From IMG/VR virus record IMGVR_UViG_3300032093_000742, positions 1 to 25,943 of that record: DNA of 25,943 nt. The stretch is one strand, 5' to 3'. The notes under the pieces were generated by a model. That model saw nothing but the letters and a program-made list of their open reading frames with translations. It was not told the DNA's origin and ran no database searches. Positions 237 to 20,359 of the stretch are shown here, one piece after another. The position numbers and the translations under genes were made by a program. Position 1 is the stretch's first letter, and each line of letters starts with the position of its first letter. This DNA is from a virus.

Positions 237-2522
237 TTAGTTAGTTATTATCCAAAGCCCGTCAATTTTTTCCATGTGGCAAGGAACGTTGTAAAGTAAT
301 TCAGTAACCACCGTAACCCGATCCGCAAGGTAAACCGTTGCCCCTGTAAAGCTCCATACATACACGTCCTCGGTGTTGTAGAATTTCATTACATCACCAT
401 TCGATCCGGTCGGAATAGTTATCACTCGATTAGCCGTAGCCACCCCGTCTAAAATATTGTGAACCCCGTTAACCGTGGCTGTGAAATTCGCGTCCGTTGC
501 GTTGGCTACAAGTGTGGTCGGGGCGTAGTAAGTTCCGCCTCCACCGCCTCCACCGCCTCCACCGCCTCCACTCAAAGCAGTCCAAACCCCGCTTATCTTT
601 GCTCTTGGTGCGCCTGTACTTGAATTTGAATAGATAGTACCATCTGGTGCGGTAGCCCCGATAAACCCTGCGTCCGCAGCCGCATCGTTAGCAAACAAAG
701 CGGGGTTGATAAACGTTGAAGAAAGACTACCTACTGCGCTACCTCCGTCTGTAATTCTTAAACGCCTTGCAGATTGACGTTCGATTCTTGCTTCGACACC
801 TCCACCGGCTGCGCCACCCGTCCAGTTCAAACCAGTAACGTTGCTAAGTTTCAATCCAGTTGCATCGTTAAAGTGCCAGGTGTTGTTGAGCACGTAACTA
901 TTTACACCGCTGCCAGCATCTCCAAAAAGCAGCAAACTTCCTGCTTGCGACCACAATCTTAAATTTCCAGACGATTCTAGTTGAAAATCGCTGAGTGAGT
1001 AAGTGTATCGACCGCTTGTTGCACCCGTTCTCCAATAAGTTCCTATACCTTCAACACCACCGCCTACCGGAGTTCTGTCTATGTAGTCGGCAATCTTATC
1101 CGCTCCCGCGTCTGTATTGCGATACCATATTTCCCCAGTTCCTGCACGTTGATGACGAATGCCATTATTACTCTTTATGGTGTTTAGTCCATAGTATTCT
1201 ACGTTATTTGAAAATACGTTAGTCCCTCCACTTGCAGAAGTGTTTATTGAATTTAGTTCTGGGTTACTACCTCCAAAAATAGGTGCTGCTTGAAATCCAC
1301 CATCCCTCCAAAAATGATTTTGTGATAAGGCGGTGTTAAATACCATAAAAGCACACGTACCATTAATATTGTCGTAGCTGGAATTATCAGTGAACGAGAA
1401 ATTTACACATCTATCCAGATACCACATTTGAGTATAGTTGGTAACCTCTAACACATTGTTTTGAAATACATTTCCAGCACTTGAATTAGTAACATCACCA
1501 ATAAATCTAAATGCCTCAGAACCTCCACAATTATACATCACCCAATTACTTCTAACCGTTATTCCATTACAATAGTTTTGCCCCCAAACAGCCCTCCTTA
1601 TAAAATCAAAGTTGCAGTTTTCAATAACGGTTCCGTAGCCTTGAAAGGGAGCAGCAATAGTATTATTTGTGATTGTTCCTGTTCCTCCTAAAACTATACA
1701 ATCTTGTGTCACACTTGTTCCAGTTGCCGAATTATTCCCAAAGAATGAAGCATCATGTATGTACAACCTAGTGTTTGTTGTCATTACAAATGGAGTTGAG
1801 AAATCATTCGCCAGTGTTGTTATTGCAATGTTGGTAATTTCTAAAGCTCCAAATCCAAGAGTTAAAAGTTTTGCCCCTGCCCCAGTATAACGTAAGTCTA
1901 AAATAGACCCTCCCTGAGCTGTTAAATTAAATGTCTGATTACTCCAATATCTACCAGCCCCTAAAATTTTAATTGACTTATTTTTTGGATTTAATGTAAC
2001 GCCATCATTGGGAATTACTATTTGCGAGTTTACTCTAAACACCCCTACAGGTACGTACATTGTGCCTCCACCTGCTGAAAAGATTGCGGCCAAGCAGTTA
2101 TTTATAGCTGTTGTGTTATCGGTCGTGCCATCCCCAACCGCGCCATAAGCTGTTATATTAAAAACCGTTTCATTTACATCGCTGACTCTTTTAGGAGTCA
2201 TCCCTTTGGTGTTGTCCGTCCCGGCCTGCGCTTCGGCTAAACTGGCTACGGTGAATCCGCCTATTGAAAGATCACCGCTGCCAAGTAATGAATTCCCGTT
2301 TACTGTTTTAATGTTTGTCCCAGATACTAACGTAGCCTGAAAAATAGGCGTTAGGTATGTTTGCCAAAGTAAAGGAGTAGCTTTTTTATTAACCCCGCTT
2401 TGAACGATAGGCACTAATTCAGTCCCAGTCAAAGAAGTAGCTGCCGGCATATCGGAAATCTTTACCTGACCAAAAGCCGACAAACTTAAAATCGAAAAGA
2501 AAAGTATAATTAGTTTTTTCAT
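237..2522 (-). CDS. Tailspike with pectate-lyase-type beta-helix and signal peptide
   Basis: This 761-residue protein starts with a Sec-type signal peptide (residues 1-19, MKKLIILFFSILSLSAFGQ). A phage-fibre-like segment follows, with AEAQAGTDNTKGMTPKRV near 97-112. At 122-137, NITAYGAVGDGTTDNT is the classic opening of a Pectate_lyase_3 beta-helix as found in capsule-degrading tailspikes. The middle is rich in Asn/Gly turn motifs that fit a beta-helix up to about residue 460. Residues 652-663 are twelve consecutive glycines, then a 98-residue C-terminal domain. Expected role: polysaccharide binding or depolymerisation during adsorption. The start overlaps the upstream stop by ATGA. The export signal is odd for a virion part assembled in the cytoplasm. 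Catalytic residues cannot be assigned by eye. Confidence 0.85.
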   Translation of the reverse strand: MKKLIILFFSILSLSAFGQVKISDMPAATSLTGTELVPIVQSGVNKKATPLLWQTYLTPIFQATLVSGTNIKTVNGNSLLGSGDLSIGGFTVASLAEAQAGTDNTKGMTPKRVSDVNETVFNITAYGAVGDGTTDNTTAINNCLAAIFSAGGGTMYVPVGVFRVNSQIVIPNDGVTLNPKNKSIKILGAGRYWSNQTFNLTAQGGSILDLRYTGAGAKLLTLGFGALEITNIAITTLANDFSTPFVMTTNTRLYIHDASFFGNNSATGTSVTQDCIVLGGTGTITNNTIAAPFQGYGTVIENCNFDFIRRAVWGQNYCNGITVRSNWVMYNCGGSEAFRFIGDVTNSSAGNVFQNNVLEVTNYTQMWYLDRCVNFSFTDNSSYDNINGTCAFMVFNTALSQNHFWRDGGFQAAPIFGGSNPELNSINTSASGGTNVFSNNVEYYGLNTIKSNNGIRHQRAGTGEIWYRNTDAGADKIADYIDRTPVGGGVEGIGTYWRTGATSGRYTYSLSDFQLESSGNLRLWSQAGSLLLFGDAGSGVNSYVLNNTWHFNDATGLKLSNVTGLNWTGGAAGGGVEARIERQSARRLRITDGGSAVGSLSSTFINPALFANDAAADAGFIGATAPDGTIYSNSSTGAPRAKISGVWTALSGGGGGGGGGGGGTYYAPTTLVANATDANFTATVNGVHNILDGVATANRVITIPTGSNGDVMKFYNTEDVYVWSFTGATVYLADRVTVVTELLYNVPCHMEKIDGLWIITN
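535..570 (-). repeat. Four perfect 9-bp tandem repeats encoding Gly12
   Basis: The plus strand reads ccgcctcca four times without a mismatch. On the coding strand this gives twelve glycine codons (residues 652-663 of the tailspike). Because the unit is 9 bp, gain or loss of copies keeps the frame and only changes the length of the flexible hinge before the C-terminal domain. Confidence 0.95.
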
Positions 2523-10361: not shown

Positions 10362-10832
10362 TTATTTTACGTTTTTTTGTTTTTCTTGATATTCATTTGC
10401 GAGTTTCGCAAACAGGGCGGGGTCATTTTCTGCGATTTCTGCCAACTTTTTAGGATCGCGGTTTGCAAGCTCCTCATAAGTAAGGCCTGATTTTTTGTCC
10501 TCAAATCCAGCTACTACCGACACTTTTTTAGTGGGTGTGATAGCGTCAATAAGCGATTTAGCGTTGTCAAAATCAGCGTTAGCCGTCTTTTCCCATGCTT
10601 GGATAACTTCGGGCTTGTCGGCAATCTTACCAGCCTTTACAGCCTCGCTTACCAATTCCTTTGCCTTTACTCCGTTAACCACTTTTTCAGCGTTGGCCTC
10701 CGATGCTGCCAGACTTTGCTTTAAAGTCTCGTTTTCTTTCTTCAACGCCTCGGCATCCGCCTTGAGTTGAACCGCGTTGCTCACGCTTTCCATTTCGGTT
10801 TTACCACCGAATAGCTTGTTGAAAATTTCCAT
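10362..10832 (-). CDS. Nested in-frame scaffold protein (internal start)
   Basis: Inside the protease gene, codon 216 is ATG at 10832 (MEIFNKLFGGKTE), preceded on the coding strand by an almost pure A/C stretch (AAAACAACAAACAAAAAAAG), the type of A-rich initiation region used in Bacteroidetes. Starting there gives a 156-residue protein holding only the helical scaffold. Lambda Nu3 and Mu gpZ are produced in the same nested way from the protease gene. The internal start is inferred from sequence context. Confidence 0.6.
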   Translation of the reverse strand: MEIFNKLFGGKTEMESVSNAVQLKADAEALKKENETLKQSLAASEANAEKVVNGVKAKELVSEAVKAGKIADKPEVIQAWEKTANADFDNAKSLIDAITPTKKVSVVAGFEDKKSGLTYEELANRDPKKLAEIAENDPALFAKLANEYQEKQKNVK

Positions 10833-11477
10833 TTCTTTTTTTGTTTGTTGTTTTGGTTCTTGTTCTTGTATTGAATTATAAACAGCAAACATTTCCTCAA
10901 GCGTTGCGCTCGCTTCAATCTTTGCCGTCTTGTTTGTTGTGATAATCTTGTCAACTATGCCCTTCTCAAGCATCTGGGATGAGTCAAAGAAATAATCTTT
11001 GCCCGAATCCATCATGTCGTTTATTTCCTCGTCCGTAAATTTGGTTCGAGCCTTTAGTAATGATTTGAATTGAGCTCTGATAACCTCAAGAAATTGTTTG
11101 CTACCTCCCTTGGGAGCGTGGATCATTGCGGTTGAGTAGTCATTAGCTGACCGTGATCCTTGCTTACCTAGCATCAAAGCGATGCCCGCCATTGAAGCCG
11201 CTAACCCTACGTTAATAGTTTCTGCTTCAGTCGCTATAATGGCATCAATTATAGACCACCCATCAATGACACGGCCTCCGATTGAATTGATCTTTACTTT
11301 GACTTGGTAGCCCTGCGACTTCCAGTAGTACATTTCTTCGGCAAATTGCGCCCCTGAAATGAATGGATCTGGGTTTTCGTCTTTCCCGATATGGGCATTA
11401 AGAAGCATAAAGACCTCATTACCAATGACTTTATCGGTAAAAACAAGGTCTTTTCTATCTTTGATACTGTGTTCCAA
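10362..11477 (-). CDS. Prophage ClpP/S49-like head maturation protease fused to scaffold
   Basis: 371 residues, TTG start at 11477 chosen because it lies just downstream of the promoter at 11502-11531. Residues 1-180 are a ClpP-like domain: INSIGGRV (63-70, oxyanion strand), GLAASMAG with catalytic Ser95, MIHAP with His120, and an Asp near 170 (DYFFDSSQMLEKGIVDKI). Residues about 216-371 are a charged helical scaffold with coiled-coil pattern (AEALKKENETLKQSLAASEA). This matches lambda C/Nu3 and Mu I/Z, in which the protease removes the scaffold from the procapsid. Capsid gene follows after one base. The catalytic Asp is an educated guess. Confidence 0.85.
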   Translation of the reverse strand: MEHSIKDRKDLVFTDKVIGNEVFMLLNAHIGKDENPDPFISGAQFAEEMYYWKSQGYQVKVKINSIGGRVIDGWSIIDAIIATEAETINVGLAASMAGIALMLGKQGSRSANDYSTAMIHAPKGGSKQFLEVIRAQFKSLLKARTKFTDEEINDMMDSGKDYFFDSSQMLEKGIVDKIITTNKTAKIEASATLEEMFAVYNSIQEQEPKQQTKKEMEIFNKLFGGKTEMESVSNAVQLKADAEALKKENETLKQSLAASEANAEKVVNGVKAKELVSEAVKAGKIADKPEVIQAWEKTANADFDNAKSLIDAITPTKKVSVVAGFEDKKSGLTYEELANRDPKKLAEIAENDPALFAKLANEYQEKQKNVK

Positions 11478-11501: not shown

Positions 11502-11531
11502 CAAAGATATTCCTAATTTTGGAATTTACAA
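11502..11531 (-). promoter_or_regulatory. Bacteroidetes-type promoter for capsid-tail operon
   Basis: On the minus strand, TTG (11531-11529), a 19-bp spacer, then TATCTTTG (11509-11502) fit the Bacteroidetes consensus TTTG/TTG N19-21 TAnnTTTG. A start of transcription about 7 bases on would leave an 18-20 base leader before the TTG start codon of the protease gene. Two inverted repeats overlap it: ATTCC-N7-GGAAT (11509-11525) in the spacer and TATCTTT-N5-AAAGATA (11491-11509) over the -7 element and start region, which look like operators. Confidence 0.7.
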
Positions 11532-11544
11532 TATTTTGGGAAAA

Positions 11545-12009
11545 TTATTTTTTAGGTGTGCTGAACTGTGATTGGTCAAACAATTCGTCAATTAAAGCGG
11601 TTCTGAACGAATCTTTTTTGTACTCATAATAGTATGCTCCAGAGTTCATAATAGAAAATTTTAGTGTGTGCTTTCTGTTTAACAGTGCGTGCCCCAATTC
11701 GTGCATTATTAATCTTTCTACAAAAATAGTATCTCCATCTGTAAGGAATTTTTGGTAATGCTTTCTGTTTATGACAACGACTATCTGATTCCCAACCATT
11801 TGAACCTCTCCCAGATTGGAGGGGTCAACCGCATGATCATCTACAATTGCAATGAGATTATTTTTTTGTAATGAGATTCCTCTTTTTGAACCCTCTTGAT
11901 AGAATTTATCTACAGATTGCTTTAATAAAGGATCTATTTTAAACTCGACCTCTTGATCAAAAGAATCGCATGACACAAAAAGCAAAAAAGCAAACAATAA
12001 TTTTTTCAT
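11545..12009 (-). CDS. Lipoprotein zinc metallopeptidase (HExxH)
   Basis: 154 residues. The first 14 residues (MKKLLFAFLLFVSC) form a lipoprotein signal peptide with the lipobox Cys14 followed by Asp15. The core holds HELGHALLNRKH at residues 103-114: HExxH for zinc (His103, Glu104, His107) and a likely third ligand His114, one residue later than in classic metzincins, then SIMNSG with a Met-turn-like Met121. Similar small 'HELGH...SIM' proteins occur in Bacteroidetes genomes. The start overlaps the fibre stop by one base. It would be exported and membrane-anchored, so it is not a head protease; host-envelope modification, lysis help, or superinfection exclusion are open. Substrate unknown. 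Confidence 0.8.
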   Translation of the reverse strand: MKKLLFAFLLFVSCDSFDQEVEFKIDPLLKQSVDKFYQEGSKRGISLQKNNLIAIVDDHAVDPSNLGEVQMVGNQIVVVINRKHYQKFLTDGDTIFVERLIMHELGHALLNRKHTLKFSIMNSGAYYYEYKKDSFRTALIDELFDQSQFSTPKK

Positions 12010-12890
12010 TAGTCTGTATAGAATCTTACTACATCTAAATTGACGCTGCTTATTGCTGTTCCTGTCGCTCCATCAAATACAACGGTACCATTAGCATTGA
12101 CAGATAAAACCCCGATAATTCTAATGGAAGCATTGAAGCAATTTAAAGAGTACCTAACTTGTTGGGCTGGCCTAAATCCAACCGGAAGAGTTCCAATCAA
12201 TCCATTGCTACCTGTGTAGGTAGTTCCGTTTGTGTGAACTTCGCCAGTAAGAGCAACCTCTCCAAGAGTGCTTTTTCTATACTTCGCTGCAAAGTTCTGA
12301 GTTGTCCAAGGAGCAGTGTACGATAAGTTTGCCCAAGCATCTTGAGCCGCGTTTGCTTTAAATCCAAGTGCCGTAACCAAAGCTGCTTGTGTTACAGCCC
12401 CGTCCGTATTACTTGCGGCTACGTTTGCGTAAAGTTTTGTTAATCCTAACTTTGTTGCATTTGCCACGCTAAATCTTCTATCATTAGCAGCGGCCACCGA
12501 TGCAATAGTAATCTCCTGACCCGATCCGTCAACGGTCGCGCTAACCTCTGCTTTCCTTTCGACAATAAACGTCTTGTTAAGAGTGTCTTGAAACGCTCTT
12601 ACAATGTTTGTAGGTGTTGCGGCCTTAATGTACTTTGGGAAAGTCTGATTGGTTACCGCATCGACACGCATAAACTCGCCATTGAGATATACTATACCAG
12701 CAGTCATGTCGAAGTTTCCAACGTTTGGCGTTACAACGCAACCAGAAACTATTACACCTTCTGCATCGTCATTGTATTGCGATAGCATAGCCTGTAATGC
12801 CGCCCATATTTCGCCTTGAAAAACATCATTCAAATCCTCGTTTGAAAATGGTGCACCCCCGGAGGGCATTGGATTATTTAGTTTTCTCAT
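12009..12890 (-). CDS. Tail fibre
   Basis: 293 residues. N-terminal residues 1-70 (SNEDLNDVFQGEIWAALQAML, then NFDMTAGIVYLNGEFMRVDAV) match the baseplate-attachment part of fibres. The middle has helical, repetitive Ala/Asn-rich segments (AASNTDGAVTQAALVTALGFKANAAQDAW) resembling phage-fibre repeats, and the C-terminal 90 residues form the beta-rich head (LPVGFRPAQQVRYSL, IIGVLSVNANGTVVFDG). The gene follows the baseplate proteins by one base. The head would bind the receptor. No chaperone gene of the Mu gpU type is obvious beside it, although the lipoprotein next door may have replaced that slot. Confidence 0.75.
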   Translation of the reverse strand: MRKLNNPMPSGGAPFSNEDLNDVFQGEIWAALQAMLSQYNDDAEGVIVSGCVVTPNVGNFDMTAGIVYLNGEFMRVDAVTNQTFPKYIKAATPTNIVRAFQDTLNKTFIVERKAEVSATVDGSGQEITIASVAAANDRRFSVANATKLGLTKLYANVAASNTDGAVTQAALVTALGFKANAAQDAWANLSYTAPWTTQNFAAKYRKSTLGEVALTGEVHTNGTTYTGSNGLIGTLPVGFRPAQQVRYSLNCFNASIRIIGVLSVNANGTVVFDGATGTAISSVNLDVVRFYTD

Positions 12891-19891: not shown

Positions 19892-20359
19892 TAATCGGTG
19901 TTTTTTCGGTGTTTACATACTCCTGCCCGTTTCGCTTGATTTTAAGCGATGGGTCAAGTTTAAGCATTCGGCCTTTTCGGGTAAATCATCGTTTTCAATT
20001 ACATCAAACTTCCCACTTCTACCATTAAACGCCACATTGTATGGCGGGTCTGTAAAAACCATGTCCGCTTTCTCGCCATCCATCAACCTTGCAACAGCAT
20101 CACTATCAGTTGAATCCCCACACAACAATCGGTGTTCGCCTATCTCAAACAAATCGCCAAGTACAATATCCGTTTTGATACCGCCTTCAGGCACGTCAAA
20201 ATCATCCTCAACAGCTTCCGCTTCTTCAACTTTAAACTCCGGCACCTCCAACCCCCACTCCTCCAGAAAGTCTTTGATGGACTGGACTAGCTTTTTAAAC
20301 TTGTCGTCCTTTATTAGACGGGGATTGTTTGGGTTGGGTTTTATCTGTGAAACCAGCAT
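19884..20359 (-). pseudogene. ParB-methyltransferase remnant with two internal deletions
   Basis: The first 31 residues ([19 protein letters not shown] ...) are the start of a ParB-like domain. At residues 31-32 they join directly to [11 protein letters not shown], a segment that in intact relatives comes about 80 residues later. The methyltransferase part starts [20 protein letters not shown] and has motif [16 protein letters not shown] (Asp104-Tyr107), but stops soon after NDDLPEKAE. Beyond that point another frame carries [17 protein letters not shown], the usual C-terminal tail, reaching a stop at 19884 that overlaps the DUF5681 start. The open frame alone is 148 residues (19913-20359). 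The SAM-binding FxG motif is gone, so activity is not expected. Family sizes are from memory. Confidence 0.7.

What the first reader, a model, noticed from the sequence alone, without database searches (positions are those of the whole stretch)
11545..12009. Lipoprotein zinc metallopeptidase inside the structural gene cluster
A protein with a lipobox (Cys14), HELGH (103-107), a possible third ligand His114 and a Met-turn-like SIM lies between tail fibre and head protease. Phage metallopeptidases anchored in the host envelope are unusual. It could process host surface proteins, assist release or block superinfection.
Basis: partly seen in the sequence, partly recalled or inferred. Interest (0 to 1): 0.65.

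Follow-up and report, generated by a model that had tools for sequence, protein, structure and literature searches.

The report
Fibre-linked phage lipoprotein metallopeptidase
Next to its tail-fibre gene this virus of a Bacteroidota-type bacterium carries a gene for a small, lipid-anchored zinc protease of an unnamed but widespread family, possibly used to clip host surface proteins and keep rival or sister phages off; the protease family is well supported, the role is still a hypothesis.

Summary
Confirmed: window 11545-12009 (minus strand) encodes a 154-aa lipoprotein with HELGH 103-107, His114 and SIM 119-121, between a tail-fibre gene and a ClpP-like head protease. It belongs to an uncurated family of short envelope-anchored zincins found in dozens of IMG/VR phage contigs and in many chromosomes of one other bacterial phylum. 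The zinc motif is HEXXHx6H, one residue longer than metzincins. With the third His left open, 61 of 80 loci had it at x6 and none at the metzincin x5. Two AlphaFold models give a metzincin-like fold (best Z 9.4: MMP-11, snapalysin). dN/dS is 0.03-0.26. In the window's two clades, 17 of 22 members abut the 3' end of a fibre gene, same strand or convergent, on different phage backbones; an unrelated backbone shares only fibre tip, peptidase and spike end with the window. This resembles T5 Llp, a superinfection-exclusion lipoprotein next to the receptor-binding gene. Best explanation: a surface or periplasmic protease that inactivates host envelope proteins, probably the receptor. Enzyme family and cassette well supported; substrate and purpose inferred (about 0.4). 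Novelty: new variant of a known kind.

The parts
11545..12009 (-). lipoprotein metallopeptidase gene, 154 aa
   Evidence: dN/dS 0.08-0.26 in window pairs
11968..12009 (-). signal peptide and lipobox, residues 1-14 (MKKLLFAFLLFVSC), Cys14 = lipid anchor (predicted by eye/rule)
   Evidence: C14 in over 90% of rows of A4
11947..11967 (-). DSFDQEV just after Cys14: acid-rich, resembles Bacteroidota surface-export signals
   Evidence: consensus SDDFE for F. johnsoniae in PMC5080379
11689..11703 (-). HELGH, residues 103-107: zinc ligands and catalytic Glu (predicted)
   Evidence: invariant in A4; active-site helix 94-110 in the model
11668..11670 (-). His114: predicted third zinc ligand, x6 spacing
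   Evidence: 61 of 80 loci with the third His left open
11647..11655 (-). SIM, residues 119-121: Met-turn-like
   Evidence: S and M over 90% in A4, M invariant in A6; profile aligns it with the Met-turn region of adamalysin 1kug
11578..11589 (-). DELF, residues 141-144: conserved end of the C-terminal helix
   Evidence: E142 and L143 over 90%; nucleotide identity with sister contig L014 starts here
12009..12890 (-). tail-fibre gene; its stop overlaps the peptidase start (TAATG)
10362..11477 (-). ClpP-like head maturation protease, downstream neighbour
11508..11552 (.). AT-rich flank, 80% like the region upstream of the inverted peptidase gene in L052; probable edge of the exchange slot
237..2522 (-). 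tail spike; its C-terminal region is shared with L003 and L006, which carry close relatives of this peptidase

Best explanation
SHOWN OR WELL SUPPORTED: the gene encodes a small lipid-anchored zincin with a metzincin-like fold and an atypical HEXXHx6H plus Met-turn-like signature. In the window's clades it travels with tail-fibre genes as an exchangeable cassette. INFERRED: made late with the fibre in this phage (translational coupling), it is lipidated and inserted in the outer membrane, perhaps flipped to the surface. There it cleaves host envelope proteins, most likely the fibre's own receptor or a coat protein that hides it, so that the infected cell or its debris no longer binds this phage or competitors that use the same fibre type. 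It would work like T5 Llp, but by proteolysis rather than by jamming the receptor.
For: Fold: pLDDT 89.7 and 86.0 for two members; the best 50 VIA-align rows of each are metzincins, Z up to 9.4, rmsd about 3 to 3.5 A for the leading rows. Motif: x6 third His in 61 of 80 loci selected without it. Envelope anchoring: lipobox in 61 of 95 by rule. Surface signal: mean 1.95 acidic residues at +2 to +8 in the fibre-adjacent group against 0.85 in the rest, p 4e-5, not corrected for relatedness. Fibre link: 17 of 22 members of the two window-type clades abut the 3' end of a fibre gene, one more is cut by its contig end; tail PHROGs hit several of those neighbours. Cassette: unrelated backbone L003 shares only fibre tip plus peptidase (74% nt over 871 bp) and the spike end; sister L014 (85% nt) carries a different peptidase allele; the same backbone in L034 and L052 has the gene inverted at the same place. 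Purifying selection. Two Mu-like members (L037, L043) have it directly upstream of the MuA-like transposase; in L037 a divergent HTH regulator is near, an early/immunity position. Precedent: Llp is a lipoprotein adjacent and downstream of the T5 receptor-binding gene (PMC9586334).
Against: No substrate, receptor, expression or localisation data. Known exclusion lipoproteins (Llp, Rtp45) act by binding, not cleavage. No report of a receptor-cleaving phage metalloprotease turned up. Many family members in other phages and chromosomes are not near fibre genes, so the ancestral function is not tied to fibres. The acidic signal does not match a published consensus exactly. Atomic zinc geometry could not be inspected.
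Confidence: 0.4

Rival explanations
1. Egress aid: the lipoprotein protease weakens the outer membrane or the surface protein or matrix layer at lysis, as a spanin substitute or a helper for virion release.
For: Late, operonic position in the window. Listeria phage-derived metzincin Mtz with Tim increases lysis and virion release (PMC8235301). The Molly lipoprotein metzincin was proposed to degrade matrix (PMC8776804).
Against: Relative L006 also encodes a lipoprotein with a C-terminal membrane segment that looks like a unimolecular spanin, so a spanin gap is not general. The gene sits by fibre genes, not lysis genes; two Mu-like members have it by the transposase.
Confidence: 0.25
2. Exclusion by attacking the incoming phage: the anchored protease cuts tail or ejection proteins of superinfecting phages in the periplasm or at the surface.
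For: Moron-like placement, often on the opposite strand; allele swaps between sister phages.
Against: Would not by itself explain tight linkage to the fibre gene; no direct evidence.
Confidence: 0.14
3. Pseudo-enzyme: keeps the fold but acts by binding, like Llp or Cor.
For: Exclusion lipoproteins with known structure act by binding (PMC9586334, PMC12685063). A few members lack the x6 His (L171, L174).
Against: His103, Glu104, His107 and a third His are kept in nearly all members, including ones found without requiring the third His; purifying selection.
Confidence: 0.1
4. Accidental passenger from a host lipoprotein with no benefit to the phage.
For: Strong homologues in many chromosomes of L020's phylum in non-phage surroundings.
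Against: Repeated association with fibre genes and low dN/dS.
Confidence: 0.06

Closest known systems
Metzincins, nearest by fold: snapalysin and matrixins
   Same: small alpha/beta domain, HEXXH helix, third His, Met-turn-like SxM, C-terminal helix; Z 9.4 to 1kuh and 1hv5
   Different: third His at x6 instead of x5, no Gly turn, lipoprotein, no Pfam metzincin family above threshold
Selecase MJ1213 (mini-zincin, PDB 4qhf)
   Same: HEXXHx6H aligns without gaps; profile E 0.0016
   Different: 110 aa, no signal peptide known to me, Met-turn not compared; weaker fold match
PF18894 PhageMetallopep
   Same: 26 of 57 members hit at E under 0.01; L020 passes the cut-off
   Different: the window protein does not hit it; the match covers only the HEXXH region
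T5 Llp, Rtp45 and Cor superinfection-exclusion lipoproteins
   Same: phage outer-membrane lipoprotein; Llp gene is adjacent and downstream of the receptor-binding gene (PMC9586334)
   Different: those are small (Rtp45 about 6 kDa, PMC12685063) and act by binding the receptor; this is a 154-aa predicted enzyme
Maribacter phage Molly lipoprotein metzincin (PMC8776804)
   Same: short lipoprotein metallopeptidase of a flavobacterial phage
   Different: canonical HEIAHVLGLGH, not matched by the family profile
Listeria Mtz/Tim (PMC8235301)
   Same: phage-derived metzincin acting on the bacterial envelope
   Different: secreted, canonical motif, paired with a TIMP-like lipoprotein

Membership tests
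Metzincins | HEXXHXXGXXH/D motif | tested here: not met
   x6 spacing; 0 of 80 loci have His at x5; definition in PMC3890501
Metzincins | Met-turn | tested here: inconclusive
   S-x-M over 90% conserved and aligned to the 1kug Met-turn region; geometry not seen
Metzincins | overall fold | tested here: met
   two models, Z up to 9.4 over 111-124 residues, all top rows metzincins; Foldseek alone weak, E above 0.005
Metzincins | three His coordinate one zinc | not testable with these tools
   no model coordinates are returned
PF18894 PhageMetallopep | curated Pfam score | tested here: not met
   no hit for the window protein
Selecase (M95) | HEXXHx6H and selecase fold | tested here: inconclusive
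   ungapped profile match E 0.0016; Foldseek E 0.02-0.13
Gluzincins | third ligand Glu downstream | tested here: inconclusive
   E142 is nearly invariant but H114 is too; geometry not seen
Llp/Cor exclusion lipoproteins | lipoprotein gene next to the receptor-binding gene | tested here: met
   that the fibre binds the receptor is inferred
Llp/Cor exclusion lipoproteins | blocks adsorption or superinfection | not testable with these tools
   needs an experiment
Bacterial lipoproteins | lipobox Cys within a signal peptide | tested here: met
   Cys14, in over 90% of aligned rows; no dedicated predictor run

The most novel reading that the evidence does not exclude
A phage receptor-destroying enzyme: tail fibre and a matching surface-anchored metalloprotease inherited as one cassette, so that receptor choice and enzymatic superinfection exclusion (or freeing of progeny from debris) move together between unrelated phages, comparable to receptor-destroying enzymes of animal viruses.
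Probability: 0.3. Interest if true: 0.8.

Novelty: new variant of a known kind. Interest (0 to 1): 0.55.

Why it matters
It defines an uncurated, widespread family of anchored zincins with a non-metzincin ligand spacing. It also gives a concrete candidate for exclusion by proteolysis in Bacteroidota-type phages, where exclusion systems and receptors are little known. The adjacent fibre tells which receptor to look at, so the idea can be tested directly.

Tried and rejected
Curated families: Pfam, PHROGs, NCBIfam and PADLOC give nothing significant for the window protein. Isolate phages: five tblastn searches of INPHARED gave no match; one search gave one weak metallo-protease hit, E 0.09, and NinB noise. 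Flavobacterium relatives pippi8-1 and FPSV-S1 carry other opposite-strand genes at the homologous place, not this one. Molly and Colly: no profile hit. First genome-contig scan with a poor pattern found nothing; the second found three loci, of which L019 and L021 are unrelated M50-like proteins and L020 is a true relative. Bacteroidota chromosomes could not be searched, for lack of a centre genome. Own promoter for inverted copies: weak, 4 of 13 with TAnnTTTG against 1.5 expected, three of them near-identical. H114 conservation was at first inflated by the search pattern; re-tested without it.

Full report
OBSERVATION. The ORF 11545-12009 lies on the minus strand and encodes 154 aa with Cys14 at the end of a hydrophobic signal, HELGH at 103-107, His114 and SIM at 119-121. 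Its ATG overlaps the stop of the upstream gene as TAATG. That gene (12009-12890) matches minor-tail families; the downstream gene (10362-11477) is a ClpP-like head maturation protease. The window is a virus record. Its tail sheath is 37-39% identical to Flavobacterium phages pippi8-1 and FPSV-S1, so a Bacteroidota host is likely.

FAMILY. Direct searches of IMG/VR gave relatives at 87, 68 and about 30% identity. A degenerate-DNA scan for the motif gave 115 stretches; 95 short motif-bearing ORFs were kept, of which 61 pass a simple lipobox rule and several others have an obvious lipobox by eye or an N-terminal membrane anchor. A 57-row alignment keeps H103, E104, G106, H107 and H114 without exception and C14, F36, L105, L110, S119, M121, E142 and L143 in 90% or more. 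Since H114 was part of that pattern, I scanned again without it: 61 of 80 loci have His at x6 and none at the metzincin x5. Among exceptions that look like true members, three have His one residue later (L183, L184, L189), one has Asp (L174) and one neither (L171). Twenty chromosomal loci from one phylum, found by profile, were examined; those displayed keep the HEXXH and third His and lie among ordinary chromosomal genes. 74 of 144 genomes there have a match at E 0.001 or better, about 35-40 of them strong.

FOLD. AlphaFold with 57 and 55 sequences gave pLDDT 89.7 and 86.0 for the window protein and for L034. Foldseek matches are weak (E above 0.005), but the structural realignment ranks only metzincins in the top 50 of each, Z up to 9.4: MMP-11 for the first, snapalysin and MMP-11 for the second. 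A profile search of PDB sequences aligns the three His and the S-I-M of the family with an adamalysin, with a one-residue gap at the spacing, and without a gap with selecase over the three His. The fold is thus metzincin-like, while the defining HEXXHXXGXXH is not met. Coordinates are not returned, so zinc geometry remains untested, and E142 as an alternative ligand is not excluded.

SURROUNDINGS. In the two clades that hold the window-type proteins (12 and 10 rows), 17 of 22 members abut the 3' end of a fibre-type gene. L014 is cut by its contig end, L037 and L043 sit directly upstream of a MuA-like transposase, and L070 and L071 are elsewhere. Two further fibre-adjacent members (L103, L116) lie outside these clades on long branches. 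The gene is downstream on the same strand (window, L003, L005, L006, L011, L012) or convergent (L007, L017, L028, L034, L051-L053, L101, L111, L117, L123). In L011 and L012 against L028, L051 and L123 it occupies the same place, between the fibre gene and a gene whose product carries KMHRSALP-type residues near its start, in opposite orientations. Fibre assignment rests on tail families for several neighbours and on position and shared C-terminal ends for others; not every neighbour has a family hit.

EXCHANGE. Against the window, L003, on an otherwise unrelated backbone, matches only over fibre tip plus peptidase (871 bp, 74%) and the end of the spike gene. L006 matches only over the peptidase and the spike end. 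L014 is 85% identical over 3951 bp up to codon 141 of the peptidase and then carries a divergent allele. dN/dS is 0.03-0.26, so the gene is kept for its protein.

MECHANISM. Shown or strongly supported: real gene, lipoprotein type, zincin fold and motif, purifying selection, fibre-linked exchange. Inferred: outer-membrane location; possible surface exposure, suggested by more acidic residues after the Cys in the fibre-adjacent group (1.95 against 0.85 at +2 to +8), similar in kind to published export signals (PMC5080379); proteolysis of host envelope proteins; and the purpose. T5 Llp, an exclusion lipoprotein encoded next to the receptor-binding protein, is the closest functional precedent (PMC9586334); Rtp45 is another exclusion lipoprotein (PMC12685063). 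Lysis aid is the main rival, with the Listeria metzincin as precedent (PMC8235301); a spanin-like gene in L006 speaks against a general spanin role.

VERDICT. Observation confirmed; interpretation partly supported. New variant of a known kind: a lipoprotein zincin family with a metzincin-like fold and atypical spacing, in a fibre-linked cassette. Confidence about 0.85 in the enzyme family and cassette, about 0.4 in the receptor-inactivation mechanism.

Noticed in passing
window 237-2522 (-), L003 8452-10413, L006 1080-2990: Tail-spike type proteins begin with what looks like a cleavable Sec signal peptide (MKKLIILFFSILSLSAFGQ), odd for virion proteins assembled in the cytoplasm; the C-terminal region is shared between phages with different backbones.
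   Followed up: partly
window 19913-20359 (-): ORF that looks like a ParB-type N-terminus joined to a DNA methylase that ends early; it may be a truncated remnant.
   Followed up: no
L169 18823-19498 (-), L170 13713-14213 (+): In isolated Flavobacterium phages the place before the head protease holds other, unrelated opposite-strand genes, as if it were a general slot for extra genes.
   Followed up: partly
L162 3759-4385: Maribacter phage Molly_1 lipoprotein with a canonical metzincin motif HEIAHVLGLGH: a second, separate line of phage lipoprotein metallopeptidases.
   Followed up: partly
L037 9752-10177, L043 9879-10349: Mu-like phages carry a family member directly upstream of the MuA-like transposase; in L037 a divergent HTH regulator lies just beyond.
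   Followed up: partly
L174, L184, L183, L189: Family members whose third ligand is Asp or His shifted by one more residue: natural variants of the zinc-site spacing.
   Followed up: no
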